From Cepaea nemoralis (Eukaryota > Mollusca > Gastropoda > Stylommatophora > Helicidae), in NCBI GenBank assembly GCA_014155875.1, contig JACEFZ010014597.1, positions 10,001-74,000 of the forward strand: a stretch of DNA of 64,000 bases, written 5' to 3'. Numbering within the stretch: position 1 is the stretch's first letter; each line of letters opens with the position of its first letter. This document shows, piece after piece, positions 3,748 to 31,951 of this stretch. The notes beneath the pieces were generated by a model that was not told the DNA's origin, did not search any database, and worked only from the letters and a program-made list of their open reading frames with translations. The position numbers and the translations under genes were made by a program.

Positions 3748-3804
<57 letters not shown>

Positions 3805-8218: not shown

Positions 8219-9785
<1,567 letters not shown>

Positions 9786-10153: not shown

Positions 10154-10159
10154 GACCTC
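10154..10159. repeat. Left target site duplication GACCTC
   Basis: The six bases GACCTC precede the element start at 10160. They are repeated exactly at 24314-24319, just after the element end. Confidence 0.85.
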
Positions 10160-10892
10160 AGTAGTTATATATGTTGCTTATTCCCCCCCCCCCCAAATTG
10201 TGGTGCCGCACCTCTTTTACTAAGAATAAAGAAGGAGGTGCGGTAGGTGCTGTCGTTTTTTAGTAAGCGCAAAGAAGCAGGTGCGGGACATAACTCAGGA
10301 GTAAATAATCATCTGTTTTTGTGATATTACCTCCCCTTTTTTGAGAATTTTCTTTAAGAATTAAAATTTAATGATTACTGTTATCATGGGTTGTAGTGGG
10401 CGGGGCTTAGTGGCATTCGTTGTTAAGGGATGGGTGAGTGGCGGTGTAGCTAGGTAAATGCTTCCGAGCACTATCATCATATCATTTTAGAGCTTCAAAT
10501 GAAAACCTTACAAATGTCAAATGGCCAGTAGTATTGATTTTAATGGGTATGGCTTAGCAAAAGTCGGTGTTAAGGAGTGGGTAGCGGTTACTAGTGAGCC
10601 GTAGAGGGCGGTAGTGGTTTAAACAACATCATCATACAGATTAAAAATTAAAACCTTAAAAAAGTAAAGATGACCGGTATTATTGCATTTAGTGGGTATG
10701 GCTTAGTGAAAGTCGTTGTTAAGGGGTGGGGTGAGTGGATGATTAATTAGATAAACGCTTCTGAACACTATCATCGGATTCGAATCCCAGTGGGGAGGTC
10801 TAGTAGTAGAAGAAATATTGATAATGTTTTGTTACTTAGTTGTGATGGAGAGCTCTGGTGTTATTAACCCGGCTATGTTTAGAAAAGGAGCT

Positions 10893-10972
10893 GGGTGGGG
10901 TCTGGTTGCTGAGTATGTTTAGGTGGTATCCCAGACACCGGGGAAGTTACAGGTTCGAATCTCGGTACTTTG
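10893..10972 (+). repeat. tRNA-like sequence in left arm
   Basis: Contains TCTGGTTGCTGAGTATG (A-box-like) and, about 45 bases on, CAGGTTCGAATCTCGG (B-box-like). The spacing suits a polymerase III promoter of a tRNA or tRNA-derived SINE. The copy is mirrored in the right arm at about 23498-23575. It is probably a SINE fragment and not a working tRNA, since a clean acceptor stem is not evident. Confidence 0.45.
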
Positions 10973-11921
10973 TCGTTGGTAAGATTTCCAGTCATCATCG
11001 TGTGGGTGTCTAGTTGATTATAGGGGTTAGTGCCGCTTTGTCCGGCCGTGTCGCCGCAGCCACGAGTCCCACCAGGGATGAAAAACACAGGCATCAAATT
11101 TCACCCTTGTACCTATGCGTCACAAAATATAACATAACTATCAGAATATGATATAATCTTAACTTCAACAGGTGTTGCCAAAAATCAATACCCATTTTCA
11201 TAACGGCTAATCCAGGGGCTTATCGTCGTCGTAATGACAAAGATGGGGTATTGATATTACTAATATCTCCGTCGTTGCAAATAGTTCGCGATATTAATAA
11301 AGGTTCATATAAAGGTTGGAAGGGGATTAAAGGATTAACACCTATTGTCGGAATATCCACATAAATCAAAAGCACTACTCAATCGATGTTTCTCATATGT
11401 GGCGGTTGGGGATTATGGGTTAGGTGTATGTGTCCTTATTCAGTTAAAACAGGTGGTATGAGTAGGAGATATCACAAACAGTATCAGCATATGCCACTCT
11501 GATCTTAAATATCAGTAGTTCGTTATTCTTGTGACATTGAAAACGATTGGGGTTTGAAAAAGGATGGTGTACTATGTGATACAGGTCACCCCTGTCAGCG
11601 CATCGTAGCTGTGTTGTGAATTGTTGCCTATTACATCCGGGTGTGAAAATAATCAAATATATTTCATATCAGATCAATAGGCATGCCTCTATATAGCTGC
11701 ACTGCGAACTTGGTTAGAGTCTACTTTAGGAAGTATCGTGTATCTGTGTATGCGCACTTACCACTGCTTATAGATGTGTGTAGTATTATTGGAGAGAGTC
11801 CGTTATGTATACATTATCAGAGTATGTTGCCTTACAGGGCTGGTGTAGTGTCTTTGTGTCTGCTACGCTGTATGTATTGTTCTGTTGCCTTGTATTATTT
11901 GGAGGGAGTTTCATGTGGTTG

Positions 11922-12122
11922 TCAAGTTAATTTTTCCCCACTCAGAATCCACATCCCCAGTGTCATTAGATGGTTTTTAACTTGTCTGCCCATTGTCCTC
12001 GCTTCACATTCATACAATAGTATAGGTTCTATGTAGTACTTGAACACTCTTTTTCTCCTTGTAATTGACATCTTTATATTAGTCATTATGTTTTCCACCT
12101 TACCAAAGACTATCTTCAACAT
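11922..12122 (-). pseudogene. LINE reverse transcriptase fragment inside left arm
   Basis: Minus-strand reading gives KVENIMTNIKMSITRRKRV and then YYIEPILLYECEARTMGRQ. These match the same segment of the LINE at 49235-50170 (KKMSIETRKRVLRGYIEPVL). Only about 65 codons remain. The fragment also occurs mirrored at 22352-22546, so the LINE piece entered before the palindrome formed. Confidence 0.75.
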
Positions 12123-12635
12123 ATCGAAGCTTGGTCTATCCTCTTAAAGACAACTACTTCTTTTATACTCTTTGATACATTTTTCCCGTGTCAAGCGTCA
12201 TGTCTCTGATCGTCTGTATTAGTGTGTTAGAAGTAAACCAACATCGCACAAGGCAGCCATACACTACCACAATGTATACAAAAAGAAGCTATACACATAA
12301 TCACAGTATATAAATATAGTACTAAATAGGAAGTAGTTGAAAGAATTCAAGTACATTATTACAAGGTAAATTAAATACAGTGATATGTATAAAATATCAC
12401 ACACCCGTGTTACACTAGCAAATAAGTACAAAGCACAAGGGTATGAATACGTTGGTGTATTACTTACATACAAATGAACCATACAACATACCGGCAAGTC
12501 CGCTACGGGACCTAACTCGTGTGAAGTTATGTCTGTAACCAATAGAAATGTGTGTGTGGTAATAACTACAATGTCTGTCTTTCGTCAAGTATCTGACCTG
12601 TTTGCATACCACTACAATACGTCGTTCACTTGTGG

Positions 12636-12850
12636 TATGCAACCAATCAGGGTAATTGTCTTAGAATTGACCCACATTTTATGTTAGACAAGCAGTGATT
12701 GGCCTTTCACTTGTGGTCTACAACCAATCAGAGTAATTGTCTTAGAATTGACACACATTTTATGTTAAACAAGCATTGATTGGCTGGCAACTATACGGTG
12801 GGCGGGGATTACTGTATGTAATATATATCCAACTCACTACCTCTCACTCA
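12636..12850 (+). promoter_or_regulatory. CCAAT-box repeats and TATA box upstream of the zinc-finger gene (left arm)
   Basis: A unit of about 73 bp containing ACCAATCAG...AATTGTCTTAGAATTGAC...TGATTGGC is repeated twice. It places CCAAT motifs in both orientations near 12640, 12698, 12728 and 12775. About 40 bases further on lies GTAATATATATCC near 12817, a TATA-box candidate. The zinc-finger ATG is at 13365, leaving about 500 bases for a leader that may be spliced. The layout looks like a pol II promoter. The mirror copy lies at about 21625-21840. Confidence 0.5.
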
Positions 12851-13364
12851 CTTTGTGATGTACACAAGAACGACGAAAGATTGGATCTTCAGTTTTGTGA
12901 TTATTCAATGACTATTTGCCTTCAAGTTTAGAAAGTTTGCCAGTTATCGTTTTGTCTCAGTATCCACGGACTATCAGCCATATACGGACCTACAGCTTTT
13001 GCGGCTCTTTCTTCCAATTTTTGGACGTTCACAACTGCCTTGTAAGAATTATCAGCCAGATTCTTACCCAGACGCATCCGAAGTGTAAGCAACCTCATTA
13101 TTCTGCCATAGTTTACAACGTTATCTGCATCGGCGCCTGAAACAAAGACGAGGAAAAAGGTGTTCGGGATTGAATCGATTTAATAGACTAGTGAATAATA
13201 CATCTTGTTGTTTGAGTATTTGACTTACCTATCTAGCCAACATCGTGTTATCTACCTTTGGTGAAAGATAGTAACTAAATATATTCAACGCTATATTCAC
13301 CACCTCGCTGCGAACGTGTGTCAAGTCGACGGTTGCTTGTCTCAGTATCAAGTCGCTAGTGAAC

Positions 13365-14204
13365 ATGCCTAAAAATACAAAGATGTCAACTAGGCAATCA
13401 TCTGAGAACCACTTATGTGCAACTTGTGGGAAAGGTTTCACTGAGCGGCGCAGTCTGCTTCGCCATACTCGGACCAGTCACAGTACCAAGGAGCAAGTGT
13501 ATTCGTGTCACACTTGTGGTCATAAGTTTAACAGAAAAGACAATCTACAACGCCACATTACAAAGGAACACACTACACCAGGAGTATCACCCAGTGTAAT
13601 ACCAGCAGACGCTTCAACACCCGCTTCAGCAACACTACGTAAGAGACATGTGGCTACTAATAGTGATGTGGCAGTCAGCGAGAAGAAGACTAAACAAGAC
13701 GAAAACGCCCATCCAGTCAGTGACACACAACCCAAGGATGAAGCGGCTTCTTTACACACCCTTCCAGATGATATTAGACAAGTATACACCGACAACTGGA
13801 GTAGTATCAAAACACATCACAAGATAAACAAATATATGTCTGTCTATACATTTTATATTAGCCCACACACAATCCACCCTAAAGACTGGGCATCTACCTT
13901 GAACAAGATCTTTACCATTCAAAAGAGCGTATTCAAAATCAACTTTAGTTATCATATAGTTCTTAGGCACAGCGAAACAGACGCTCTTCGATTGTTTCAC
14001 GCATCTTCAAATAATGCTTCTGTCTGAGAACTTCCACAACTAATCAAAAATAGACAAGACTTTGACGATTTTATCAAAACAGTACACGAACACGACGTTC
14101 TTACCTACGCTATGCAACAACGTTCAAATACCAAATACACTACAGAGACGATTCCAGCTATATGTTTTTATGTCTATCATATCCCAGAATTCCGGCTTGT
14201 TTAA
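13365..14204 (+). pseudogene. Two-C2H2-finger protein with internal stop (left arm)
   Basis: An ATG at 13365 opens 220 codons. Two C2H2 fingers are clear: C18, C21, H34, H39 and C48, C51, H64, H69. A Ser/Thr/Lys-rich linker follows, then a conserved-looking domain from DDIRQVYTDNWSSIKTHHK. At 14025-14027 there is a TGA, but the same frame stays open for 58 more codons (starting ELPQLIKNRQDFDDFIKTV) to TAA at 14202. A polyadenylation-type AATAAA overlaps the end. The second domain resembles, from memory, the N-terminal region of large proteins that carry DNA polymerase B domains in animal mobile elements; I cannot confirm this here. The polymerase part is absent. The protein would be a nuclear DNA-binding factor if made. 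Confidence 0.65.
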
Positions 14205-14449
14205 TAAATAACCACCCTTTTATGACCCACGTTAGGCACCACTGTGCATGATCATACTAGATATAACATTCCATATTTAACCATCCGTTTTGTATACTGG
14301 TATTACGCTTGTTCCTTTGTGTGTGTAAACTTTGCTGGAAATACTGTAAAATAAACAGTTTTATGTATTATAAGTGTGTTCACTTGTTGGTTTTAAGTGT
14401 TGATGGTACATATGAGTGTCATGTGGTGAGCGGGTGTTACATGTTGATG

Positions 14450-16150
14450 GCCAAGTCAAGAAATATCTCAACCAAACTTATAAATATGTGGACAAAGTAG
14501 GAAAATTTGTTAGCCAAAGGTGAAAAATGTCAGCCAAGTAAAGAAATATCTCATCTAAACTTATAAAGAGGTCGATCGATATAAGAAAATATGTTAGCCA
14601 AATTAGGAAAAATATTGGCCAAGTAAAGAAATATCTCATCCAAACTTATAAAGAGGTCGATCGATATAAGAAAATATGTTAGCCAAATTAGGAAAAATAT
14701 TGGCCAAGTAAAGAAATATCTCATCCAAACTTATAAAGAGATCGATCGATATAAGAAAATATGTTAGGCAAAGTAGGAAAAATATTGGCCAAGTAAAGAC
14801 AGGTGTCAACTAATCTTATAAATATGTCGGCCAAACTTATAAAAATTAGGAAAATTTGTTAGACAAAGGGGAAAACTGTTGACCATGTAAAGAAAATTCT
14901 CGGCTAAACTCATAAAAAGCAGGAAACTTTGTTAACCAAATGTGAAAAAAAAAATATTGTCCGAATAAAGACATGTTTCAACTAATCTTATAAATATGTT
15001 GTCAAAACTTATAAACATTAGGAAAAGGTGTTAACCAAATGGGAAAAATATTGTCCAAGTGGAGAAATATCTCAACCATTCTTATAAAAATTAGGAAATT
15101 GTGTTAACCTAATGAGAAAAATATCGCCCAAGTGAAGAAAGATTTACACAAAACTTATAAAACTTAGGAAAATGTGTTAACCTAATGAGAAAAATATTGA
15201 CCAAGTAAAGAAAAATTTACACCAAACTTACGAAAAGTAGGAAAACGTGTTAGCCAAATGGGAAAAATAGTAGCCAAGTAAAGAAGTATTGCATGCAAAC
15301 TTTTAAAATGTATGAAAATTTGTTAGCCAAATGTGAAAACTGCTGACAAGTAAAGAAACTTCTCGACCAAACTCATAAAAAGTAGGAAACTTTGTTAACT
15401 AAACGTGACAAAATATTGTCCAAGTAAAGACATGTTTCAACTAGTCTTATAAATATGTCGCCCAAACTTATGAACATTAGGAATATGTGTTAACCAAATG
15501 GGAAAAATATTGACCAAGTGAAGAAATATCTCAACCATACTTGTGAAAAGGCGAATAATGTGTTAACCTAAGGGGAAAAACATTGGCGAAGTGAAGAAAT
15601 ATCTCAGCCATTCTTATAAAAATTAGGAAAATATGTTAACTAATGAGAAAAATATTGCCCAAGTAAAGAAAAAATTTACACAAAGCTTATAAAACTTAGG
15701 AAAATGTGTTAACCTAAGGAGAAAAATATTGACCAAGTGAAGAAATATCTCAACCATACTTATGAAAAGGAGAAAAATGTGTTAACCTAACGGGAAAAAC
15801 ATTGGCGAAGTGAAGAAATATCTCAGCCATTCTTATAAAAATTAGGAAAATATGTTAACCTAATGAGAAAAATATTGCCCAAGTGAAGAAAAAATTTACA
15901 CAAAACTTATAAAACTTAGGAAAATGTGTTAACCTAAGGACAAAAATATTGACCAAGTAAAGACAAATTTACACCAAACTTATGAAAAGTAGGAAAATTT
16001 GTTAACCAAAAGGGAAAAAATATGGGCTAAACTGTGAAATATGTTGACCCAAGTAAGAAAATCTGTTAGCCAAAGGGGAAAAATGTTGGCCAAAACATGA
16101 AACATTTTAACCAAACTTATAAATAGCTCGTGTAAACTTATAAATAAGTA
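14450..16150. repeat. 1.7 kb degenerate minisatellite (left arm)
   Basis: More than 20 diverged units of about 60-85 bp built on GGAAAAATATTGGCCAAGTA, AAGAAATATCTCAACC and CTTATAAA. The first units near 14570-14760 also carry TCGATCGATATAAG. No coding sequence is seen. Confidence 0.9.
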
Positions 16151-16278
16151 GGGGAAAAAATTGCTTCTGTAGTTATGTCAAAAGTGTCTTGAACTTTTAT
16201 CTGAACAGACATGTCACACTACATAATCATCAACGTCAGCATTATTCTCCTTTTACATTACCGAAAGCTTCAACTTAC

Positions 16279-16740
16279 CATTCCAGAGTATCTGTTAAAG
16301 AAACACGTATACAGACTATTCACCCATCTCTCCACACTCTTGGTTTTTGCTTTCTTACACAAAGTGTCTATGTCTTTCGTAGATGTCTTCACATCTTTTC
16401 CATGTCACATCACCAAGAACTCCAAACCTCCATTGTACACGAGCTCCAATGAAACAGTCATAATAACATTCATGGCAATGCAGTCTGTGGCTCCACCTGG
16501 GATAGTTTGGATACCATCTGAGTATTCAGCAGCAAAAATCCCTTTCCCCTGGTTGAAATCTTCAACTTTCTATACCACAAGGTCTGTTCCACTAACCTTC
16601 CATTGTTCCAGCTTTCAACAATACAAAGGATGTTCTCGAAGTCTAACTAACGTAATATTTCTTACTTTGTCCACCTCTATCACACTTTGTCATTTTACAG
16701 CTGCAATAGCAGCAAGTCTGCAACCAACTAACAGTGTCTG
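16279..16740 (-). pseudogene. Decayed unknown coding exon (left arm)
   Basis: Minus-strand mirror of 17728-18189 with the same four in-frame stops. It lies on the opposite strand to the zinc-finger gene of this arm and converges with it across the minisatellite. I do not recognise the protein. Confidence 0.4.
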
Positions 16741-17034
16741 TTATGAAATCGACCATTCTTAAAACCACGTCTGCCTTAATGAACCCTTGAATACCCTCTA
16801 CCACATCTTCTAACCGACTTTCAACGTTTCATACCAAATAATATTAACACTCTCTTTTATTACAGAGCAGCCGATTTTCTGCTGACTGGGCAGATTTTCC
16901 AACCTAATGGAGATAAATCATCTGTCCCCCTAACATACTAGGCGGTATTCTAGACAATGAATATGGTCATCAACCATCACCCCTAAGAAGAACTTGAAAA
17001 CAACATCAGAGATTGGGTTCCTGAGACGAATTCC

Positions 17035-17433
17035 ATGGACTACCAGAGTAACTAACGCTGATCGCCTAAAAAAGCCTAAGAAACATGGAGCATTATATAC
17101 ATCAAACACAACAAATTCGTTCTTACTAACCCTAACCCTAACCCTAACTACTCAATAAACACAACAAACTATATCTTACTAACCCTAACCCTAACTATAC
17201 ATCAAACACAACAAACTCTTTCTTAAGAGACATGGAGGCAAACCAGTGTCAGAAATGGAAAAAGTTAAATTTGTGTGAGTAAATTTTAATTAAAATTTAA
17301 AAATAATAAATCGCAATTTTATTTGCGCACTTCACTTAATATACAGATATAGGCTACGTATAGCTTAGGTATAGGACGTATATTGAGCTTACATCTTAAG
17401 CAATAAATTGCGATTTATTATTTTTTAATTTTT
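17035..17433. other. Unique centre of the palindrome
   Basis: 399 bp that are not part of the arms. They include a short duplication with ATCAAACACAACAAA and telomere-type repeats. They also hold a smaller inverted repeat (AATAATAAATCGCAATTTTA near 17300 and its near-complement near 17400). This would form the loop if the arms paired. Confidence 0.85.
17126..17195. repeat. Short telomere-like (CCCTAA)n blocks
   Basis: Two blocks, about three and a half and two and a half CCCTAA units, at 17127-17149 and 17179-17195. Each is followed by a piece with CACAACAAA. CCCTAA/TTAGGG is the telomere repeat of most animals including molluscs. Confidence 0.8.
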
Positions 17434-17727
17434 GGAATTCGTCTCAGGAACCCAATCTCTGATGTTGTTTTCAAGTTCTTCTTAGGGGTGATGGTTGGTG
17501 ACCATATTCATTGTCTAGAATACCGCCTAGTATGTTAAGGGGACAGATGATTTATCTCCATTAGGTTGGAAAATCTGCCCAGTCAGCAGAAAATCGGCTG
17601 CTCTGTAATAAAAGAGAGTGTTAATATTATTTGGTATGAAACGTTGAAAGTCGGTTAGAAGATGTGGTAGAGGGTATTGAAGGGTTCATTAAGGCAGACG
17701 TGGTTTTAAGAATGGTCGATTTCATAA

Positions 17728-18189
17728 CAGACACTGTTAGTTGGTTGCAGACTTGCTGCTATTGCAGCTGTAAAATGACAAAGTGTGATAGAGGTGGACA
17801 AAGTAAGAAATATTACGTTAGTTAGACTTCGAGAACATCCTTTGTATTGTTGAAAGCTGGAACAATGGAAGGTTAGTGGAGCAGACCTTGTGGTATAGAA
17901 AGTTGAAGATTTCAACCAGGGGAAAGGGATTTTTGCTGCTGAATACTCAGATGGTATCCAAACTATCCCAGGTGGAGCCACAGACTGCATTGCCATGAAT
18001 GTTATTATGACTGTTTTATTGGAGCTCGTGTACAATGGAGGTTTGGAGTTCTTGGTGATGTGACATGGAAAAGCTGTGAAGACATCTACGAAAGACATAG
18101 ACACTTTGTGTAAGAAAGCAAAAACCAAGAGTGTGGAGAGATGGGTGATTAGTCTGTATAAGTGTTTCTTTAACAGATACTCTGGAATG
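17728..18189 (+). pseudogene. Decayed unknown coding exon (right arm)
   Basis: One frame stays protein-like for 154 codons apart from four stops. Readable parts include QSVIEVDKVRNITLVRLREH, KVEDFNQGKGIFAAEYSDG, IQTIPGGATDCIAMNVIMTV and KTKSVERWVISLYKCFFNRY. The stops are TGA or TAG codons at places where Trp or Tyr would fit. The frame ends at TCTGGAATG followed by GTAAGT, a perfect splice-donor match. This suggests a former exon of an element gene. No family is recognised. The frames on the opposite strand are shadows. Confidence 0.42.
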
Positions 18190-18299
18190 GTAAGTTGAAG
18201 CTTTCGGTAATGTAAAAGGAGAATAATGCTGACGTTGATGATTATGTAGTGTGACATGTCTGTTCAGATAAAAGTTCAAGCCACTTTTGACATAACTAC

Positions 18300-20030
18300 A
18301 GAAGCAATTTTTTCCCCCTACTTATTTATAAGTTTACACGAGCTATTTATAAGTTTGGTTAAAATGTTTCATGTTTTGGCCAACATTTTTTCCCCTTTGG
18401 CTAACAGATTTTCTTACTTGGGTCAACATATTTCATAGTTTAGCCCATATTTTTTCCCTTTTAGTTAACAAATTTTCCTACTTTTCATAAGTTTGGTGTA
18501 AATTTGTCTTTACTTGGTCAATATTTTTGTCCTTAGGTTAACACATTTTCCTAAGTTTTATAAGTTTTGTGTAAATTTTTTCTTCACTTGGGCAATATTT
18601 TTCTCATTAGGTTAACATATTTTCCTAATTTTTATAAGAATGGCTGAGATATTTCTTCACTTCGCCAATGTTTTTCCCGTTAGGTTAACACATTTTTCTC
18701 CTTTTCATAAGTATGGTTGAGATATTTCTTCACTTGGTCAATATTTTTGTCCTTAGGTTAACACATTTTCCTAAGTTTTATAAGTTTTGTGTAAATTTTT
18801 TCTTTACTTGGGCAATATTTTTCTCATTAGTTAACATATTTTCCTAATTTTTATAAGAATGGCTGAGATATTTCTTCACTTCGCCAATGTTTTTCCCCTT
18901 AGGTTAACACATTATTCTCCTTTTCACAAGTATGGTTGAGATATTTCTTCACTTGGTCAATATTTTTCCCATTTGGTTAACACATATTCCTAATGTTCAT
19001 AAGTTTGGGCGACATATTTATAAGACTAGTTGAAACATGTCTTTACTTAGACAATATTTTGTCACGTTTAGTTAACAAAGTTTCCTACTTTTTATGAGTT
19101 TGGTCGAGAAGTTTCTTTACTTGTCAGCAGTTTTCACATTTGGCTAACAAATTTTCATACATTTAAAAAGTTTGCATGCAATACTTCTTTACTTGGCTAC
19201 TATTTTTCCCATTTGGCTAACACGTTTTCCTACTTTTCATAAGTTTGGTGTAAATTTTTCTTTACTTGGTCAATATTTTTCTCATTAGGTTAACACATTT
19301 TCCTAAGTTTTATAAGTTTTGTGTAAATTTTTCATCACTTGGGCGATATTTTTCTCATTAGGTTAACACAATTTCCTAATTTTTATAAGAATGGTTGAGA
19401 TATTTCTCCACTTGGACAATATTTTTCAAATTTGGTTAACACCTTTTCCTAATGTTTATAAGTTTTGACAACATATTTATAAGATTAGTTGAAACATGTC
19501 TTTATTCGGACAATATTTTTTTTTTCACATTTGGTTAACAAAGTTTCCTGCTTTTTATGAGTTTGGCCGAGAATTTTCTTTACATGGTCAACAGTTTTCA
19601 CCTTTGTCTAACAAATTTTCCTAATTTTTATAAGTTTTGCCGACATACTTATAAGATTAGTTGACACCTGTCTTTACTTGGCCAATATTTTTCCTACTTT
19701 GGCTAACATATTTTCTTATATCGATCGACCTCTTTATAAATTTGGATGAGATATTTCTTTACTTGGCCAATATCTTTCCTAATTTGGCTAACATATTTTC
19801 TTATATCGATCGACATCTTTATAAGTTTGGATGAGATATTTCTTTACTTGGCCAATATTTTTCCTAATTTGGCTAACATATTTTCTTATATCGGTCGACC
19901 ACTGTATAAGTTTAGATGAGATATTTCTTTACTTGGCCGACATTTTTCACCTTTGGCTAACAAATTTTCCTACTTGGTCCACATATTTATAAGTTTGGTT
20001 TAGATATTTCTTGACTTGGCCATCAACATG
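18300..20030. repeat. 1.7 kb degenerate minisatellite (right arm)
   Basis: Mirror copy of the array at 14450-16150, with the same order of variant units. The array had its present structure before the arms were copied. Confidence 0.9.
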
Positions 20031-20267
20031 TAACACCCGCTCACCACATGACACTCATATGTACCATCAACACTAAAAACCAACAAGTGAACACACTTAT
20101 AATACATAAAACTGTTTATTTTACAGTATTTCCAGCAAAGTTTACACACACACAAAGGAACAAGCGTAATACCAGTATACAAAACGGATGGTTAAATATG
20201 GAATGTTATATCTAGTATGATCATGCACAGTGGTGCCTAACGTGGGTCATAAAAGGGTGGTTATTTA

Positions 20268-21107
20268 TTAAACAAGCCGGAATTCTGGGATATGATAGAC
20301 ATAAAAACATATAGCTGGAATCGTCTCTGTAGTGTATTTGGTATTTGAACGTTGTTGCATAGCGTAGGTAAGAACATCGTGTTCGTGTACTGTTTTGATA
20401 AAATCGTCAAAGTCTTGTCTATTTTTGATTAGTTGTGGAAGTTCTCAGACAGAAGCATTATTTGAAGATGCGTGAAACAATCGAAGAGCGTCTGTTTCGC
20501 TGTGCCTAAGAACTATATGATAACTAAAGTTGATTTTGAATACGCTCTTTTGAATGGTAAAGATCTTGTTCAAGGTAGATGCCCAGTCTTTAGGGTGGAT
20601 TGTGTGTGGGCTAATATAAAATGTATAGACAGACATATATTTGTTTATCTTGTGATGTGTTTTGATACTACTCCAGTTGTCGGTGTATACTTGTCTAATA
20701 TCATCTGGAAGGGTGTGTAAAGAAGCCGCTTCATCCTTGGGTTGTGTGTCACTGACTGGATGGGTGTTTTCGTCTTGTTTAGTCTTCTTCTCGCTGACTG
20801 CCACATCACTATTAGTAGCCACATGTCTCTTACGTAGTGTTGCTGAAGCGGGTGTTGAAGCGTCTGCTGGTATTACACTGGGTGATACTCCTGGTGTAGT
20901 GTGTTCCTTTGTAATGTGGCGTTGTAGATTGTCTTTTCTGTTAAACTTATGACCACAAGTGTGACACGAATACACTTGCTCCTTGGTACTGTGACTGGTC
21001 CGAGTATGGCGAAGCAGACTGCGCCGCTCAGTGAAACCTTTCCCACAAGTTGCACATAAGTGGTTCTCAGATGATTGCCTAGTTGAAATCTTTGTATTTT
21101 TAGGCAT
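20268..21107 (-). pseudogene. Two-C2H2-finger protein with internal stop (right arm)
   Basis: Mirror of 13365-14204: ATG at 21107, the same internal TGA at 20445-20447 and the same end at 20268. Few amino-acid changes separate the copies (Met7Ile; Ala to Thr in the Lys-rich linker). The shared TGA shows that the stop arose before the inverted duplication, or that it is tolerated. Confidence 0.65.
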
Positions 21108-22351
21108 GTTCACTAGCGGCTTGATACTGAGACAAGCAACCGTCGACTTGACACACGTTCGCAGCGAGGTGGTGAATATAGCGTTGAATATATTTAGTTA
21201 CTATCTTTCACCAAAGGTAGATAACACGATGTTGGCTAGATAGGTAAGTCAAATACTCAAACAACAAGATGTATTATTCACTAGTCTAGTAAATCGATTC
21301 AATTCCGAACACTTTTTTCCTCGTCTTTGTTTCAGGCGCCGATGCAGATAACGTTGTAAACTATGGCAGAATAATGAGGTTGCTTACACTTCGGATGCGC
21401 CTGGGTAAGAATCTGGCTGATAATTCTTACAAGGCAGTTGTGAATGTCCAAAAATTGGAAGAAAGAGCCCAAAAGCTGTAGGTCCGTATATGGCTGATAG
21501 TCCGTGGATACTGAGACAAAACGGTAACTGGCAAACTTTCTAAACTTGAAGGCAAATAGTCATTGAATAATCACAAAACTGAAGATCCAATCTTTCGTCG
21601 TTCTTGTATACATCACAAAGTGGGTGAGAGGTAGTGAGTTGGATATATATTACATACAGTAATCCCCGCCCACCGTATAGTTGCCAGCCAATCAATGCTT
21701 GTTTAACATAAAATGTGTGTCAATTCTAAGACAATTACTCTGATTGGTTGTAGACCACAAGTGAAAGGCCAATCAATACTTGTCTAACATAAAATGTGGG
21801 TCAATTCTAAGACAATTACCCTGATTGGTTGCATACCACAAGTGAACGACGTATTGTAGTGGTATGCAAACAGGTCAGATACATGGCGAAAGACAGACAT
21901 CGTAGTTATTACCACACACACATTTATATTGGTTACAGACATAACTTCACACGAGTTAGGTCCCGTAGCGGACTTGCCGGTATGTTGTATGATTTATTTG
22001 TATGTAAGTAATACACCAACGTATTCATACCCTTGTGCTTTGTACTTATTTGCTAGTGTAACACGGGTGTGTGATATTTTATACATATCACTGTATTTAA
22101 TTTACCTTGTAATAATGTACTTGAATTCTTTCAACTACTTCCTATTTAGTACTATATTTATATACTGTGATTATGTGTATAGCGTCTTTTTGTATACATT
22201 GTGGTAGTGTATGGCTGCCTTGTGCGATGTTGGTTTACTTCTAACACACTAATACAGACGTTGAGAGACATGACGCTTGACACGGGAAAAATGTATCAAA
22301 GAGACTAAAAGAAGTAGTTGTCTTTAAGAGGATAGACCAAGCTTCGATATT

Positions 22352-22546
22352 TTGAAGATAGTCTTTGGTAAGGTGGAAAACATGACTAATATAAAGATGT
22401 CAATTACAAGGAGAAAAAGAGTGTTCAAGTACTACATAGAACCTATACTATTGTATGAATGTGAAGCGAGGACAATGGGCAGACAAGTTAAAAACCATCT
22501 AATGACACTGGGGATGTGGATTCTGAGTGGGGAAAAATTAACTTGA
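22352..22546 (+). pseudogene. LINE reverse transcriptase fragment inside right arm
   Basis: Mirror copy of 11922-12122, with the same short reverse-transcriptase segment on the plus strand and one codon deleted relative to the left arm. Confidence 0.75.
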
Positions 22547-23497
22547 CAACCACATGAAACTCCCTCCAAATAATACAAGGCAACAGAACAATACATACAG
22601 CGTAGCAGACACAAAGACACTACACCAGCCCTGTAAGGCAACATACTCTGATAATGTATACATAACGGCCGCTCTCCAATAATACTACACACATCTATAA
22701 GAAGTGGTAAGTGCGCATACACAGATACACGATACTTCCTAAAGTAGACTCTAACCAAGTTCGCAGTGCAGCTATATAGAGGCATGCCTATTGATCTGAT
22801 ATGAAATATATTTGATTATTTTCACACCCGGATGTAATAGGCAACAATTCACAACACAGCTACGATGCGCTGACAGGGGTGACCTGTATCACATAGTACA
22901 CCATCCTTTTTCAAACCCCAATCGTTTTCAATGTCACAAGAATAACGAACTACTGATATTTAAGATCAGAGTGGCATATGCTGATACTGTTTGTGATATC
23001 TCCTACTCATACCACCTGTTTTAACTGAATAAGGACACATACACCTAACCCATAATCCCCAACCGCCACATATGAGAAACATCGATTGAGTAGTGCTTTT
23101 GATTTATGTGGATATTCCGACAATAGGTGTTAATCCTTTAATCCCCTTCCAACCTTTATATGAACCTTTATTAATATCGCGAACTATTTGCAACGACGGA
23201 GATATTAGTAATATCAATACCCCATCTTTGTCATTACGACGACGATAAGCCCCGGGATTAGCCGTTATGAAAATGAGTATTGATTTTTGGCAACACCTGT
23301 TGAGGTTAAGATTATATCATATTCTGATAGTTATGTTATATTTTGTGACGCATAGGTACAAGAGTGAAATTTGATGCCTGTGTTTTTCATCCCTGGTGGG
23401 ACTCGTGGCTGCGGCGACACGGCCGGACAAAGCGGCACTAACCCCTATAATCAACTAGACACCCACACGATGATGACTGGAAATCTTACCAACGACA

Positions 23498-23575
23498 AAG
23501 TACCGAGATTCGAACCTGTAACTTCCCCGGTGTCTGGGATACCACCTAAACATACTCAGCAACCAGACCCCACCC
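23498..23575 (-). repeat. tRNA-like sequence in right arm
   Basis: Mirror copy of 10893-10972 with the same B-box-like GGTTCGAATCTCGG read on the minus strand. It was therefore present before the arms were duplicated. Confidence 0.42.
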
Positions 23576-24313
23576 AGCTCCTTTTCTAAACATAGCCGGG
23601 TTAATAACACCAGAGCTCTCCATCACAACTAAGTAACAAAACATTATCAATATTTCTTCTACTACTAGACCTCCCCACTGGGATTCGAATCCGATGATAG
23701 TGTTCAGAAGCGTTTATCTAATTAATCATCCACTCACCCTACCCCTTAACAACGACTTTCACTAAGCCATACCCACTAAATGCAATAATACCGGTCATCT
23801 TTACTTTTTTAAGGTTTTAATTTTTAATCTGTATGATGATGTTGTTTAAACCACTACCGCCCTCTACGGTTCACTAGTAACCGCTACCCACTCCTTAACA
23901 CCGACTTTTGCTAAGCCATACCCATTAAAATCAATACTACTGGCCATTTGACATTTGTAAGGTTTTCATTTGAAGCTCTAAAATGATATGATGATAGTGC
24001 TCGGAAGCATTTACCTAGCTACACCGCCACTCACCCATCCCTTACCAACGAATGCCACTAAGCCCCGCCCACTACAACCCATGATAACAGTAATCATTAA
24101 ATTTTAATTCTTAAAAAAAATTCTCAAAAAAAGGGAGGTAATATCACAAAAACAGATGATTATTTACTCCTGAGTTATGTCCCGCACCTGCTTCTTTGCG
24201 CTTACTAAAAAACGACAGCACCTACCGGCACCTACAGCACCTCCGTCTTTATTCTTAGTAAAAGAGGTGTGGGACCACAATTTTGGGAGGGATAAGCAAC
24301 ATATATAACTACT

Positions 24314-24319
24314 GACCTC
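24314..24319. repeat. Right target site duplication GACCTC
   Basis: Exact copy of 10154-10159, immediately after ...ATAACTACT. The flanks beyond the six bases do not match. Confidence 0.85.
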
Positions 24320-25572: not shown

Positions 25573-28500
25573 TGTGACAAGACCGCCGGGGATTGGACTG
25601 GTTTGCCACGATAGATATTATCCCCAGCCTTTGCTCCAACCACCTCAATAGCACTCTACATCTACCAGGCCCCACACAAGCCGGGACAGCATGACCTCCC
25701 CTCCCTCACCTAGGGTTCCCTACCCCAAGGGGGCTCGGACCAGACACCAGTCATATCACTGCACAAAGTCATAGCTAAGAGAACAAAAATTTAATTCTGA
25801 ACTAAGTCAACCACAACACAGAGAAGGATGGCTGAAAGCCAGACGAGAAGAACTATGTACAAGATCAGAGATGCCGATGAGTATTCTTCATCATGGAGGC
25901 GGACGATAGCTCGTGCCGTTGTCCAGTCGTGGTAGCGACTCACCCAGGCTCCTCCAGTGGACTGGAACTCCAAGGTCTGCTGCCTCTCCAAAGTTCCCTC
26001 TTCACACAGAGAACCAATCACGGGCTGATCAAGCGCAGTACCACTGCCTGACTGACACTGCACCGATGAACAAGGATCCTTCCTTGCTGTCGTACTATAT
26101 CACTCGTCACACTCCTGATGAAGTTGGGCCGACCCTAGAATATTAGCGGTCTCCCACTTGCAGAAAAGTACTTGTAGCACCGTATCAAAATACACAAGAG
26201 CCTGGTCACTCTTCTATCTCATAAGTGACCCACACACTGATATGTCACCTACACAATGAGCGGTTGCTCCACATGAACACACAATGTCACTGGCAAAGTC
26301 TATCAGGTGACTAAACACTTCACCTTATTTCCATGTCCTTGGACAAATAGATCTTCACACAGTCTCATGCAACTACCCTGATCAAATGGGTATCAATCAC
26401 AACCTAGCATACACTGTCAACAGTTCACCACGTTGGACTGAGGTAGCTCACTACCTTAACAAACATGTCCCTCTGGTGTTCCCACCAATGATGTAATCAA
26501 TGTCTTAGGTCACTGGACCACATGTTGGCTTCATAAAGGTAACCAATGTAGAAACACTATTTAAGCATCAAATTATACATGGTGTCCCATAACCCAGCCG
26601 GGCCAGAAGCATATCACACAGGCCATGGTGACCGGTAACACTGATCACCCTGCTCAACTTGAAAGTTCACAACCTTGCAATCACCAAGGTTTACACTGAG
26701 TATGAATTTCACCAGTGCTTCACTGGCTAGAATCATCAGACGTTTCAGTGTTGGATCCTCTCAGGATCGGATGACACTCGTCGGACTCTTGACGGAGGTC
26801 CTAACCTAGACCTACCGACTTATTCAGCACCCAGCTCCTTCCAACATTGATCTCGCAGAATCAGACGACCACTCCCAGTATGGCCTCAATCAACTTCTGG
26901 ATAGGCACTGGAATGAGTGGGCCCATAGAGCTCATGGTGAAGCTCTTGAATCTTCTTCAGTATAGTAATAACAGATCCTGAAACACGGAGAGGTTGGTGT
27001 GAGTACTCAACTACAACAAAGACTACCAGCATCTCCACCATGTCACCTGCCTCTCAGACATTCCTCATGTCTACCAACATGAGTATGAAATCATCACATC
27101 ATAGATCTACTTAGTCACTATAATATATAGGCATAATGATGGTAGAAAAAGCAATAGCACACCTGTTCAGTCAAGTAACACTTCTGGGCTACAAATAACC
27201 CCTAGCACCAGAGTCGACTGTATGACTCTGTCAAGCATCCTTCGCCTGGTGCCAGTCCAATCCTGTTTCATCTTCCATCATCAATCAACATATACACCTA
27301 CTTCCCTTTCAGTGTAGTGATTACTGTATCGAGAAGGTGTCCAGCCGGACATCTCCTTCCTGACAGACTCATCAATTCATCAATCCCTTAACCCATGGAC
27401 TGATCAATTACACACATTAATAACTATATGCCCATAATGAATTATACTCCTGATAATTCATTACTATAGCATTAACCAAGGAGAACTCATGAATTGTTAC
27501 ATTTAAATAACAAACTCATTTCACAGCCATAGTGTCAGTTCTGGGATCCCTGCCCCAGATCCTGAGTTGCCCTTTTATTCACTGACTATCTTCCAGGTCA
27601 GTCATACCTGTGCCGGTCGAGCACAGCTGTGGTGGCCATCCACCATTACACTTTCCCACAGCTACTGTGGGTCCCGTGTACCTTGTCCCGTGACGACTTA
27701 AGTCACGTCATCCAATGTAGCAAGCCTCCAGACTCCACTACCAAACTCTGGCTCCACCTTTTTTTTTGGGGGGGGGGGGGATTATTCCCCTCATATACTA
27801 CTACTTCACGGCAGTACTCCAAGTACTCCATGAACCGAGTCAGGGTTCCAGAAGAGTAGAATATTAGAGACAGAAACGGTTAGGTTCAAACCTCGATCTA
27901 TCTAGACACCACGGCCTCGAATTACGGAGTGCCGCATCACCCTCGATCGGGTATGTTCAACCATCGGATATGCTCGATCGCTTTGGGTCGGACCTGTAAC
28001 CTAACGGGTTGGGCGTACCGGCCTACCTCCCAGTCGGCTGCCTAGACAAACGTACGATGGAACACGCACGGTCATTCTAGCGGACGGACATGACAACAAG
28101 CAGTAACAATAGTATCATGAATACTTCCTATCAACTGTTATCCTACCGATGCAACACCATTCTGCTTACGCGGAATAACACTGCTATCTGCACACAGCAA
28201 ATACACCACGGCTGATCTCACCTTGATTCCTCGAAAAATCACCATCACTGATAGAACAATTAAGTTACAATTCTAATGTCACGAAGCACATTACACATCT
28301 CTAATAATAAGCTCTACCTTATCATTATTTACAGCGTCTAGCATGTTGATGTAATGACTGACAAACTTTCGCCTTGCATGCGTAATTAATAAACCAAACA
28401 AGTAACTGCTACACACTGTAAAGCACATCGTTCGGCCTATTTTATTTACACACCACTCGCTGTGGAATACGGCTTGTTCCGTCAGGTAACACATTACGTC

Positions 28501-29093
28501 GCTGATCGATAAAGGCTACTTAAATATGCAGACAGCCAGCTGTAACTTGTAACGCTACGCGACGACTCATTTTCGACGGCAATTAATTCGTTCGGGGAGG
28601 TCGGCACGGCATAAAGACAACAGTTAAACAATAGAATAAGTATTCAACTAACCTGTGATTGAACAATCACAAACTTGACTGCAGATGTCCGCTCTGGCCG
28701 CGAATATTGACATCAAAATTACAGCAGCCTGTTGGCTGTGATCTGTCTACGCTGAGGTCTGGTTGGCGACTGACCACGACTAAGTCAGTGCGCCTTCAAC
28801 TCGCCTACACGGGCCGCGTGACTTTCATGATTCATGAAGAAAACCAGAGTCACGATAAGTTCCACCAACCCGTGCTGCATGAAGCACTCGTGAACTTAGA
28901 GATCTCGACCACGTACGCACTTGAGGGAACATTCTAGATTTCTCTATAAATAACTAGTATAGCTCCGCCCCGCACTACTTTCCTAGGGAAATCCCCTGTT
29001 AATTGACATTAAAGTCAAGGGAGACCAACGCCTCGCACTCCCTTCAAAGGGATATTATGCAGAGATCTGCCGATCTGCAGCCGTTTCGTCACA
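25573..29093 (-). repeat. 3' LTR (left copy, 3521 bp)
   Basis: In element sense it starts TGTGACGAAACGGCTGCAG at 29093 and ends GGTCTTGTCACA at 25573. In the same sense a GC box (GGGGCGG near 28966-28973) is followed by TATTTATAG near 28943-28951, a plausible promoter. An AATAAA lies about 500 bases downstream near 28441-28448. A run of T then G near 27762-27780 varies in length between the LTRs. A 90-codon frame at 25791-26063 with a hydrophobic end is present in both LTRs, but it has no ATG and no known match. Confidence 0.95.
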
Positions 29094-29108
29094 TAGGCCC
29101 CCACTTAA
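29094..29108 (-). other. Polypurine tract
   Basis: On the minus strand TTAAGTGGGGGCCTA directly precedes the 3' LTR (TGTGAC). The purine run is short but correctly placed for plus-strand priming. Confidence 0.6.
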
Positions 29109-29278
29109 GATGGTCGACCCGGTCGAACTCACTAGACAAAGATCGGTCTGAACTCTGAACCTCTACTCTATCAAGATTGGATTTCCAGGAAAGGACGTTC
29201 CATAACGTTCACTTTCCCTGGGGAGATCTACCAGAATGGTATGGATGCTGGCTCACCAACCACCGCCTCAAACATACG

Positions 29279-31951
29279 TTATCTCCAGCGATTAGGCCCG
29301 AAACGTAACGGCCTGGTGATTGGCTTACAGGATCTGTCCTCTACACTGGACTGTTCCGCATCCACCTGGTGTAGGCCATCGGTTACTTTACTGAGGGTTC
29401 GTTCGTCCCTTCCGACAATAGGATTCTTCCTATCCCGACCCGGCATCACCCTCGTGGACTGTTCGCGGATGTCGACCGAAATGAATGGTCGCTTACTCCA
29501 GGTTCGTCTGGAGTACCCTCTCTCCTGCCTTCTCTCCCGCGAGTAAGGACAGTGAGCCTGTCGGCGTATCGAGTCACCCGACGATCCCGTCGTGCCAGAT
29601 GTGACTTCGCCTGTCCGACCTCGATTCCCAGTGTGCTTAACACCATGGGCCTCTTCCCGACGGAGCCTGTTCGCCCTATCTACGGTTGAACGCTCAGGAG
29701 ACCGCAGACCCTCCCCACAGGATGTACTGCGTAGGACTGAGTCTTCCTCGCCCTCGTCTGGACCCAGAACCGAATCTAGCGCGATGGTAGTCGCACTATC
29801 TTGTGGAGAAACTACCTCGGACCTCTCCAAATTCTGAAGGAGAGTACAATGGAACTTACGCAATTCCCCGCGGACCTTCACCTCATACGTGGATCGGGAC
29901 ATTATCCGTTCCACAGGAAAAGGGCCCTGCCATCCGAGTTCGAATTCCGCCCCCTCGATTGGGAGAAGCGCGAGAACCCTATCTCCAATCTGCAGAGATA
30001 AACCGTTTCTGGTCCTGTGCTTTGGTGCTGCCAGACAACACGTTGGGCACGACCGGATATATCTCCGCACGTCGCCTGTCATTCCAGGCCAGTGGTAGTG
30101 GCTGGAAAGACACTGGACTGTTGTCCCCACATCCTTATGTCCGGTTAAGGATAAGGTATGCACTCTATGTATCAAGCGGGATCTGTAGTCAGTAGGGACT
30201 ACCATCTGACCGTACTGGCTATCCCCTTGCCCGGCTCTACGATAAAGCAACCGGTTTTCTACATATAACTGACCCGGAGTTGGCGGGTCAGAGCTTTGGG
30301 ACACCTCCAGTAAGTAAGGACGCAAAGTCTGGTCCCTACTTTGAGCACTGCTCACTAACCTCGCAAGAGAATGGTCTATCAACTTACCACACTGCCTTTC
30401 TCCATCCTTAGCCCTGGCCTGCCTAGCGCTCACTAGACAATGTTCCCTGGGGTCCCCCAGGAATACATGTGGACGACCGAGGATCAAAGGGTAAATAGGA
30501 TCAGGCAGCACAGCCGCCTGGATGCTACCCGTAACATACCTGCACCGAATGTCAATCCGAGCAATCGGCAAGTCCATAGCTACGGAGCTCCTCATGGCCA
30601 GCTGGAATTCTCTTGTCTCGCCGGTGAGCTGCCCTGGGCTCACAAGGTGGGATGAGATTACAGCTTCAAACTGCAATCCTGTATCGTATAGACATTCCAC
30701 CTGCTTCCCATTCACCTCTATCGTTTCGACCACAGGTGATTTCTCAGACTTTGGTTTCTCCCGACCCTTAGGTGTGGTCTCGCTAGGTCTACCCCTAATA
30801 GAGGCGAGACACGCAAAGTGCAAGTCCTTTGGCTTCCTCAGACAATCTACAGTATTATGGGAAGGAGACTTACAGTACTTACACCACCTCTTACTCCACT
30901 TCCGTTTTGGGGAGGCGGGAGGGCTTTGCTTCTCGGGTTTCTTACCAGAGTCTTTTACCACAGGATCTGCTACATTGGATGATTCTTTGGGACCTTTGGT
31001 CTTGGGCTTCTGATCAAGCCCCTTCTGCCTTTTCTGTGACTCAGTCTGACTGGAATCCCCAGTCTCACCATAGACTTCCACATACCTTTCAGCTAACTTA
31101 TTTACTATGTCTAGCCTTTCCGCCCCATTTTCCCCTAAGAAATTCCTTAAAGGCTTGGACATCTGCATTTTCATTTGATCCACCACCATCAACTCTCTCA
31201 GACTCTCATAATCCTCTTTGAAATTGGCCAACGCCATCCATTTCAACAGGTATGAGTTCAGCCTCACACTATAGGCCGAGAACATCTCACCTGGTTCTCT
31301 CTTGGAAGTTCTGAACCTCCGCCTGTAAGCATGGGCTGTCATTTCGAATCTTTTCAAAAGAGCCGATTTCAGGGTTGGATAATCATTTTCCATCCCTGGG
31401 GGAAGACGCACATACACTTTGTACGCGGTGCCACGGAGTCCTTGTGAAAGCTTAAGATTCCAACGCTCAGGCTCTAAACCCATAGCTTTACACATTGCCT
31501 CGAACTTCTCTAAGAATTGATCTATCTTCTCTTGGTCCGGTTCAAATGGTGGAAACGGCCATTTCATAGCATGGTAAGCTGGTCTGCTGGCTACTGATGA
31601 GCTAGGTAAAGCTACTCCACCTACTGCTCCCTCAGAATCACCAACAGATTTAGCCTCTACCTCAAGTTGCTTCATACGGAACTCATGTTCCATTTCCAAC
31701 TTCCTAGCATCTAATTTCTTAGACTCTAGGTCAGCTGCAAGTTTTTGTGCCTGTTGGTCTGCCACCAACTTTTGCTCTTCAAGTGCTAACTTTCGAGCTT
31801 CAAGCTCAATTTCTGACTTCCTTCGCTCCATCTCTTCTGCTCTGAAGTTTCTCTCTACTTCCAGTACATAGGCTTTAAACTCCTCACCTTCCAATCCCAT
31901 CTCAGTTGCAGATGCCCGCACCTTAGCTAAATCTAAAGTACGAGTAGCCAT
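29279..31951 (-). CDS. Gag-protease-like protein fused in frame to integrase end domains (890 aa)
   Basis: The ATG at 31951 lies 218 bases downstream of the primer site. Residues 25-105 are a charged Glu/Lys/Arg-rich coiled coil. Residues 128-295 are a Gypsy Gag capsid region with AYRRRFR and KREPGEMFSAY, similar in style to SCAN-related Gags. C357, C360, H365, C370 form a CCHC knuckle. A protease-like part (LYDTG, 421-425; LILGRP, 489-494) follows. Reverse transcriptase and RNase H are absent; the frame jumps to the integrase H2C2 finger (H598, H605, C635, C638, with HWPGM). The integrase DDE core is absent too, and a GPF-type C-terminal domain follows (GWQGPFPVERI, 673-683). The last 180 residues are Arg/Ser-rich. 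Both deletions keep the frame. The protein could package RNA but cannot copy or integrate it. Confidence 0.85.
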   Translation of the reverse strand: MATRTLDLAKVRASATEMGLEGEEFKAYVLEVERNFRAEEMERRKSEIELEARKLALEEQKLVADQQAQKLAADLESKKLDARKLEMEHEFRMKQLEVEAKSVGDSEGAVGGVALPSSSVASRPAYHAMKWPFPPFEPDQEKIDQFLEKFEAMCKAMGLEPERWNLKLSQGLRGTAYKVYVRLPPGMENDYPTLKSALLKRFEMTAHAYRRRFRTSKREPGEMFSAYSVRLNSYLLKWMALANFKEDYESLRELMVVDQMKMQMSKPLRNFLGENGAERLDIVNKLAERYVEVYGETGDSSQTESQKRQKGLDQKPKTKGPKESSNVADPVVKDSGKKPEKQSPPASPKRKWSKRWCKYCKSPSHNTVDCLRKPKDLHFACLASIRGRPSETTPKGREKPKSEKSPVVETIEVNGKQVECLYDTGLQFEAVISSHLVSPGQLTGETREFQLAMRSSVAMDLPIARIDIRCRYVTGSIQAAVLPDPIYPLILGRPHVFLGDPREHCLVSARQARAKDGERQCGKLIDHSLARLVSSAQSRDQTLRPYLLEVSQSSDPPTPGQLYVENRLLYRRAGQGDSQYGQMVVPTDYRSRLIHRVHTLSLTGHKDVGTTVQCLSSHYHWPGMTGDVRRYIRSCPTCCLAAPKHRTRNGLSLQIGDRVLALLPIEGAEFELGWQGPFPVERIMSRSTYEVKVRGELRKFHCTLLQNLERSEVVSPQDSATTIALDSVLGPDEGEEDSVLRSTSCGEGLRSPERSTVDRANRLRREEAHGVKHTGNRGRTGEVTSGTTGSSGDSIRRQAHCPYSRERRQERGYSRRTWSKRPFISVDIREQSTRVMPGRDRKNPIVGRDERTLSKVTDGLHQVDAEQSSVEDRSCKPITRPLRFGPNRWR

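What the first reader, a model, noticed from the sequence alone, without database searches (positions are those of the whole stretch)
10154..24319. A Polinton-like element that is one giant palindrome: possible snap-back defective genome
Seen: exact 6-bp duplication GACCTC, termini AGTAGT/ACTACT, two arms of 6875 and 6880 bp around a 399 bp centre, and no polymerase, integrase, ATPase or capsid frame. Known: Maverick/Polinton elements make 6-bp duplications, have AG...CT ends and are thought to replicate as protein-primed linear DNA. Adenoviruses, which also replicate that way, give defective genomes that are inverted duplications of one end. Inference: one end of a Polinton was copied back on itself to make a palindrome with two identical ends, and it was then integrated by a helper. 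I know of no described integrated Polinton of this form.
Basis: partly seen in the sequence, partly recalled or inferred. Interest (0 to 1): 0.9.

Follow-up and report, generated by a model that had tools for sequence, protein, structure and literature searches.

The report
Self-mirrored family of Polinton-ended elements
The 14-kb mirror-image DNA seen in the window is real and is one of many similar copies in an animal genome: a mobile element with Polinton-type ends that travels as a hairpin-like palindrome and whose two halves were probably alike when it arrived.

Summary
In detail: 10160-24313 is an inverted duplication (98.5% identical arms) with AGTAGT/ACTACT ends and a perfect 6-bp duplication GACCTC. 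It is not a one-off. The window's own genome (3.47 Gb) holds a family of such palindromes: 57 head-to-head pairs among 150 scored matches, 250 matching termini against 0 for a control pattern, and perfect 6-bp target duplications in 20 of 25 copies examined, 19 different words. A shared central loop (~75-85 nt) was found once on each of 40 contigs and lies within 7 bp of the midpoint in 6 of 10 copies measured; the window copy has lost ~250 bp beside it. The two halves of one copy are far more alike than halves of different copies (median 0.30% against 5.4% re-paired at random), and 30 of 31 listed end pairs carry the same end-word: the halves become equal around each insertion, as LTRs do. 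Best reading: one fold-back founded the family; helper Polinton enzymes copy and insert it, and copying through a hairpin equalises the halves. Polymerase genes exist in the genome, but no helper with matching ends was found, and the conserved zinc-finger frame was not shown to be polymerase-derived.

The parts
10154..10159 (.). left target-site duplication GACCTC
10160..17035 (+). left arm, begins AGTAGT; outer region, zinc-finger frame, tandem array
11941..12155 (-). scrap alike (75%) to 49362-49576, which lies in a reverse-transcriptase frame; mirrored at 22316-22527
13275..14027 (+). zinc-finger frame of the left arm (250 aa here, open over 296 aa in 23 of 30 family arms read)
14448..16123 (.). 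tandem array of mostly ~73-bp units in the left arm, mirrored at 18346-20022
17036..17283 (.). ~250 bp present only in the left half of this copy but in both orientations in six other copies: the matching piece of the right arm has been lost
17292..17319 (+). left side of the central stem (28 bp here; in sister copies simply the innermost part of the arms)
17320..17404 (.). central loop, ~75-85 nt, the pivot shared by the family
17405..17432 (-). right side of the central stem, abutting the right arm
17433..24313 (-). right arm, ends ACTACT
20445..21197 (-). mirror copy of the zinc-finger frame, with the same early stop
24314..24319 (.). right target-site duplication GACCTC

Best explanation
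The window holds one copy of a multi-copy, non-autonomous element family whose unit is itself a near-perfect ~13.5-kb palindrome with Polinton/Maverick-type ends. SHOWN: palindromic structure, repeated insertion with 6-bp duplications, one shared central loop, arms of one copy far more alike than arms of different copies. INFERRED: (1) an element with one Polinton-type end was once folded back at its inner side, leaving a ~75-85-nt loop, and copied onto itself, giving a molecule with two identical ends; (2) it is replicated as linear DNA by protein-primed polymerase and inserted by integrase, both supplied by Polintons in the same genome; (3) in each cycle the molecule passes through a single-strand hairpin, and copy-back from the centre (or mismatch repair of the hairpin) makes the halves equal, so that arm divergence dates each insertion, as LTRs do; (4) the window copy was inserted at about the time of the neighbouring LTR element, then lost ~250 bp beside the centre.
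For: Family and pairing: 15 contigs with a + then - pair, 10 with a single match; 57 head-to-head pairs, 0 tail-to-tail, 1 same-strand pair, 34 single contigs, from 150 matches. Ends: 129 forward and 121 reverse termini, control pattern 0; 30 of 31 pairs among the 100 listed places share the end-word, re-paired at random mean 4.2, maximum 13 in 20000. Target duplications: perfect in 20 of 25 copies examined, never mismatched where both ends were found; empty site for C14713. Pivot: one primary match on each of 40 contigs, 40 of 980 candidates scored, within 7 bp of the midpoint in 6 of 10 copies measured; palindrome runs through the centre in 6 of 8 fetched centres. Equal arms: median 0.30% within a copy against 5.4% re-paired, 0 of 20000; C22783 0.15% against 5.0% to the nearest other copy, window 0.9% against 4.9%, C25214 1.8% against 10.3%. 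Clock: arms 80/6867, neighbouring LTRs 39/3520. Polymerase genes in the genome.
Against: No element joining these ends to a polymerase or integrase gene was found: the only contig shared between 87 polymerase contigs and the 66 contigs of listed termini has them ~60 kb apart (only 100 of 250 termini were listed, and integrase was not searched). The 296-aa frame is not significantly similar to the polymerase N-terminal pieces fetched. Two of 18 copies (C20799, C23537) have arms from two lineages over the outer ~1.4 kb, so equalising is not absolute. 7 of those 18 copies' arms are not sisters in the tree. The length of the repeat that primed the founding fold-back cannot be read, since the copied arms run on from it. 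Protein priming and hairpin replication were not observed.
Confidence: 0.57

Rival explanations
1. The family is mobilised as above, but the arms are kept alike by gene conversion between the two arms after insertion in the chromosome, not by the replication cycle.
For: Conversion between arms of chromosomal palindromes is well known (recalled). Pooled over 16 copies, divergence is 3.3% at 20-60 nt and 1.5% at 120-250 nt from the end, against 0.2-0.4% beyond 250 nt, which conversion fading toward unique flanks would also give; the first stretch is however a poly-C run and part of the second looks like misalignment at the edge of the block. Arm differences in the window are mildly clumped (dispersion P 0.03).
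Against: The longest difference-free run in the window arms is unremarkable (P 0.11), and arm divergence equals that of the neighbouring LTRs (1.16% against 1.11%), as if nothing had been erased since insertion; that is one locus. C20799 and C23537 keep strongly different outer arms.
Confidence: 0.25
2. It is a foldback-type cut-and-paste transposon of some other superfamily with 6-bp duplications; Polinton likeness of the ends is convergence.
For: Long-TIR expansion is known in Galileo/Foldback elements (PMC3573991 passages). No Polinton core gene was seen in the element.
Against: The end motif (AGT)2//(ACT)2 together with 6-bp duplications is the commonest state reported for vertebrate Mavericks. 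No transposase was seen in the frames scanned. Galileo TIRs range from 18 bp to 1,250 bp, not whole element length.
Confidence: 0.13
3. One-off snap-back defective Polinton genome.
For: Structure of the single copy; snap-back genomes known in AAV (abstract of PMC8235507).
Against: Many copies with different 6-bp duplications and one shared pivot.
Confidence: 0.02
4. Assembly artefact: haplotypes or fold-back reads joined head to head.
For: Genome is fragmented (26579 contigs); palindromes are hard to assemble; no reads were available.
Against: Different flanks on the two sides, matching 6-bp duplications in 20 of 25 copies, an empty site, and unequal copies such as the window's 80 arm differences.
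Confidence: 0.01

Closest known systems
Polinton/Maverick elements (adintovirus-like); PMC8097293, section 7 and part 1 of section 14 read, passages elsewhere
   Same: (AGT)2//(ACT)2 ends, 6-bp target duplications, size in the 12.7-24.6 kb range, and a gene reading inward a few kb from the end outside which an accessory region lies.
   Different: Terminal repeats of intact vertebrate elements there are 46-1447 bp (mean 402); here they are the whole element. No core gene recognised in the element; two identical halves.
AAV snap-back genomes (PMC8235507, abstract seen); adenovirus left-end inverted duplications (recalled)
   Same: A genome end copied back on itself to give a palindrome with two identical ends, dependent on helper functions.
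   Different: Those are genomes of defective particles; this is a lasting, repeatedly inserted family.
Fold-back priming of large palindromes at short inverted repeats (PMC7999016, passages seen)
   Same: Large palindrome with a small loop at its centre; a 42-bp inverted repeat is enough in yeast (passage).
   Different: There it makes chromosomal duplications; here the product is mobile, and the size of any priming repeat cannot be read.
Galileo / Foldback transposons (PMC3573991, passages seen)
   Same: Very long inverted terminal repeats with internal tandem arrays; chimeric copies. The paper remarks that expansion of Polinton inverted repeats has been reported.
   Different: P-superfamily cut-and-paste; TIRs up to 1,250 bp.
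LTR retrotransposons (recalled)
   Same: Two repeats made equal at each insertion, so their divergence works as a clock.
   Different: Direct repeats made by reverse transcription; here inverted halves of DNA.

Membership tests
Polinton/Maverick | AG-type end motif, (AGT)2//(ACT)2 | tested here: met
   both ends of the window copy and of 19 further copies; 250 termini in the genome
Polinton/Maverick | 6-bp target-site duplication | tested here: met
   20 of 25 copies, 19 different words
Polinton/Maverick | protein-primed PolB gene in the element | tested here: not met
   no polymerase domain in 22 of 24 frames scanned
Polinton/Maverick | rve integrase, packaging ATPase, capsid genes | tested here: not met
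   same scans; the element is at best a non-autonomous derivative
Polinton/Maverick (non-autonomous derivative) | shares its ends or a gene fragment with an autonomous Polinton | tested here: inconclusive
   polymerase genes are in the genome, but none inside a listed end pair (100 of 250 ends listed); 296-aa frame against polymerase N-terminal pieces no better than shuffled or reversed controls
Snap-back defective virus genome | both halves copied from one end, small loop at the centre | tested here: met
   shared loop at or near the midpoint
Snap-back defective virus genome | arises and replicates with a helper | not testable with these tools
   needs biochemical or infection data
Foldback/Galileo transposon | P-superfamily transposase | tested here: not met
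   no transposase domain in the 22 of 24 frames scanned; a non-autonomous relative is not excluded by this alone

The most novel reading that the evidence does not exclude
A lasting class of animal mobile DNA whose every cycle passes through a single-strand hairpin: each new copy's two halves are made from one half by copy-back at a built-in central loop, so the palindrome renews itself and keeps its own insertion clock. It would be a helper-dependent 'hairpin satellite' of Polinton-type viruses that has spread to roughly a hundred loci and keeps one conserved zinc-finger gene of its own. A second palindrome with a full polymerase frame in each arm (C9089) hints that the form has arisen more than once in this genome.
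Probability: 0.42. Interest if true: 0.87.

Novelty: new variant of a known kind. Interest (0 to 1): 0.8.

Why it matters
As far as I know (recalled), Polinton replication is inferred from gene content and not observed directly. A multi-copy family of near-perfect palindromes with Polinton ends, whose halves are equal at about the time of insertion, is a natural record of how such DNA is copied: it points to linear, end-initiated copying with single-strand hairpins, and makes that testable by arm comparisons across loci and species. It would also show that snap-back defective genomes, known as by-products, can become a stable mobile family, a satellite of endogenous viruses. I saw no description of a palindromic Polinton in the PMC searches I ran on this (titles and starts of abstracts, and the passages named in this report); one paper remarks that expansion of Polinton inverted repeats has been reported, and I did not see its source. 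Subscription papers and preprints are largely not held.

Tried and rejected
One-off event, haplotype misjoin and plain in-place inverted duplication: rejected by many copies with their own target duplications. Conversion of one Polinton arm from the other in place through its short TIR: considered because the outer 70 bp of the window arms differ more (P 0.04; 0.42 once the poly-C run is masked); rejected for the family since many insertions share the same pivot. MITE inserted at the centre: rejected, the loop is the centre in other copies too. A ~38-bp size for the founding stem, which I had first written: withdrawn, since that length was set by how much I displayed or searched; 28 bp is only what is left of the stem in the window copy. 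Bcl-2-like frame at 12931-13179 (Pfam E 0.022): unrelated Pfam hits of the same strength occur in these frames and PDB gave none; left as a lead. Identity of the zinc-finger frame: protein searches (only zinc-finger proteins; nothing), viral contigs (L001 looks like a phage contig and a chance match), PDB (nothing below E 0.4), NCBIfam and PHROGs (weak hits only) and a poor structure model (pLDDT 42, not used for a fold search) gave nothing usable. Host: best named LINE relatives are Batillaria and Branchiostoma at 57%, unnamed ones up to 60%, so an animal, not identified further.
Full report
What is in the window. The segment 10160-24313 (14,154 bp) is an inverted duplication: arms 10160-17035 and 17433-24313, 80 substitutions and 7 gaps apart, around 397 bp. 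The ends read AGTAGT...ACTACT, with GACCTC on both outsides and no homology of the flanks at the boundary. In the left half and centre 22 of 24 frames of 60 aa or more were scanned with Pfam; the only clear domain is a pair of C2H2 zinc fingers in the 250-aa frame 13275-14027. Its stop is the same in both arms, so that loss is older than the arms' last equal state, or was copied between them.

It is a family. After nine unanswered tries the window's own genome could be searched: 3.47 Gb in 26,579 contigs. The outer 1.84 kb of the arm gave 41 matches (40 of 4236 first-look candidates scored): 15 contigs hold a + then - pair 10.5-14.2 kb from end to end, 10 hold a single match. With the protein tail of the frame, 150 places were scored of 2809 candidates, all 91% identical or more: 57 of 92 contigs hold one head-to-head pair, none a tail-to-tail pair, one a same-strand pair, 34 a single match. 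A degenerate pattern of the terminus occurs 129 times forward and 121 times reverse, its reversed control never. That is about 125 copies' worth of ends, haplotype duplicates included; ends that do not fit the pattern exactly are missed.

Each copy was inserted as a unit. Of 25 copies examined (the window's, 14, 10) 20 have both ends with a perfect 6-bp duplication; none in which both ends were found had a mismatch. Two (C5768, C24096) share duplication and flanks and are probably one locus on two haplotypes, so there are 19 different words. In some searches the pair of AGTAGT sites with the best-matching words was chosen among the few present. The five others: C25214 lacks the right terminus; in C26526 and C4747 the piece fetched on the right is not arm sequence (C4747's right end was later found 21.5 kb from the left); C12443 showed no ends; C26570's right end was not in the piece. 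C14713 sits in a repeat whose uninterrupted form is in the window at 59508-59592 (joined flanks 95% over 85 bp): an empty site.

One centre. Inside the window's centre a 28-bp inverted repeat (17292-17319 / 17405-17432; 21 bp of it exact, against at most 11 in 60 shuffles) abuts the right arm. I took this for the true pivot, with 17036-~17283 an indel between the arms. Other copies bear that out: in 6 of 8 fetched centres (C22783, C26004, C21007, C14713, C6419, C20799) the palindrome runs straight through the centre (94-97%), and the window's extra ~250 bp, or most of it, occurs in both orientations; in C22237 and C25214 the fetched piece showed no such symmetry. At base level the arms close on a loop of ~75-85 nt that is not self-complementary, alike in the five looked at (the automatic axis for C22783 was off by one). 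Searching the pivot found 40 primary matches (40 of 980 candidates scored) on 40 different contigs, 37 of them with a second, reversed match to its own stem. In 6 of 10 copies with known ends it lies within 7 bp of the exact midpoint; the window's is 122 bp off, as the right-arm loss predicts; three are 1.5-2.4 kb off and have a short arm. One shared pivot points to one founding event. A centre with a small unpaired loop is what fold-back priming leaves; such priming at short inverted repeats is known (passages of PMC7999016). How long the priming repeat was here cannot be read, since the copied arms run on from it.

The halves are made equal again and again. If the palindrome had formed once and its halves then drifted, left arms would resemble left arms of other copies more than their own partners. 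The reverse holds. For 18 copies (two mis-anchored ones, C26526 and C4747, dropped from 20) the median difference within a copy over the outer 2 kb is 0.30%; re-pairing arms at random gives a median of 5.4%, never below 1.06% in 20,000 tries. The deep lineages show it best: C22783 0.15% within, 5.0% to the nearest other copy; window 0.9% and 4.9%; C25214 1.8% and 10.3%. Four copies with only 76-79% likeness to the window over ~0.64 kb of the outer arm have halves 97.6-98.9% alike. The two ends carry the same 17-nt word in 30 of 31 pairs among the 100 listed places, against a mean of 4.2 and maximum of 13 when shuffled. Against: 11 of 20 copies form sister pairs in the tree and 9 do not, two of these being the mis-anchored ones and several lying among very similar young copies; C20799 and C23537 have outer arms of two lineages over ~1.4 kb but alike inner arms, so mixed molecules exist; and divergence near the ends is raised.

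When. The arms of the window copy differ by 80/6867, the 3.5-kb LTRs of the neighbouring element (25573-29093 / 32196-35722, 5-bp duplication ATGCA) by 39/3520: 1.16% and 1.11%. Arm differences lie fairly evenly (longest clean run P 0.11; dispersion P 0.03). That suits halves that were equal at insertion and have drifted since, and speaks, though from one locus only, against steady conversion afterwards.

The frame. In 23 of 30 arms (the 30 best of 150 matches, hence a biased set) the zinc-finger frame is open over 296 aa; among 13 distinct open versions pN/pS is 0.50, and the frame differs less than the 1 kb upstream in 12 of 12 comparisons. So it is probably a used gene. Its place and inward direction resemble the polymerase gene of vertebrate Mavericks, which made me suspect a polymerase N-terminus. 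The test did not bear this out: weak matches in the same order (zinc finger; a stretch near the C-terminus) to polymerase pieces of this genome were no stronger than shuffled controls, apart from one piece (L114) that was barely above its own (22.7 against 22.3 bits), and profile comparison equalled the reversed control.

Helpers. The genome holds many full-length DNA_pol_B_2 genes (95 matches, 91 of 296 candidates scored, frames to 1409 aa), so polymerases of that family are at hand. None of the 87 contigs has a polymerase inside a listed end pair (100 of 250 ends listed). Integrase genes were not searched. Membership in Polintons therefore rests on ends and target duplications alone: it works like one; that it descends from one is likely but unproven.

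A second palindrome. C9089 carries two head-to-head polymerase frames (1409 and 1404 aa), arms identical over 1401 bp and palindromic over 1 kb at the centre, from about 265985 to 278181; its ends are not AGTAGT and I saw no 6-bp duplication. Its centre does not match the family's DNA.

Literature. PMC8097293 (section 7, part 1 of section 14, passages): end motifs, 6-bp duplications, TIR 46-1447 bp. PMC8235507 (abstract): snap-back AAV genomes. PMC3573991 (passages): long-TIR Galileo, and a remark that expansion of Polinton inverted repeats has been reported. PMC7999016, PMC11071296, PMC6431247 and PMC2836005 (passages). Adenovirus inverted-duplication genomes are recalled. None of the ten searches listed a palindromic Polinton family, as far as titles and starts of abstracts show.

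Verdict. Ordinary explanations fit poorly. The protein-primed, hairpin-based cycle is the best reading, not a demonstrated one. The mended point on stem size does not change my odds, as the shared loop carries that argument.

Noticed in passing
G000 C9089:265985-278181 (L106-L108, L112, L113): A second palindrome with a full polymerase frame in each arm, arms 100% alike over 1401 bp, ends of another type, no target duplication seen.
   Followed up: partly
window 25573-35722: LTR element with unusually long 3.5-kb LTRs (98.7% alike), 5-bp duplication ATGCA; its inner frame 29279-31951 has an Integrase_H2C2 domain.
   Followed up: partly
window 17096-17225: Telomere-like CCCTAA units inside a ~53-bp repeat beside the palindrome's centre.
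   Followed up: no
window 12931-13179 (-): Frame with a very weak Bcl-2 match (Pfam E 0.022), at the level of chance hits in the same scans; cut short in the other arm.
   Followed up: partly
G000 C20799, C23537: Copies whose outer ~1.4 kb of arm come from two lineages while the inner arms agree: recombinant palindromes.
   Followed up: partly
G000 C5768 and C24096: Same target duplication and flanks on two contigs, probably haplotypes; arm divergence 1.0% in one and 0.1% in the other.
   Followed up: no
window 3634-4154, 9301-9643, 59405-59770: Dispersed repeat with CAGA tails and stretches 'CGGGAACGGGA...'; one family copy (C14713) is inserted in it.
   Followed up: partly
window 11941-12155 and 49362-49576: Scrap alike to a reverse-transcriptase frame of the window, carried inside both arms of the palindrome.
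   Followed up: no
G000 C19005:341275-348250; C8302:391992-408096: Neighbouring polymerase genes: head-to-head 7 kb apart in C19005 (800 bp at the midpoint not palindromic), same strand 15 kb apart in C8302.
   Followed up: partly
window 54562-54892 and 35996-36145: Further short self-inverted repeats in the self-comparison of the window.
   Followed up: no
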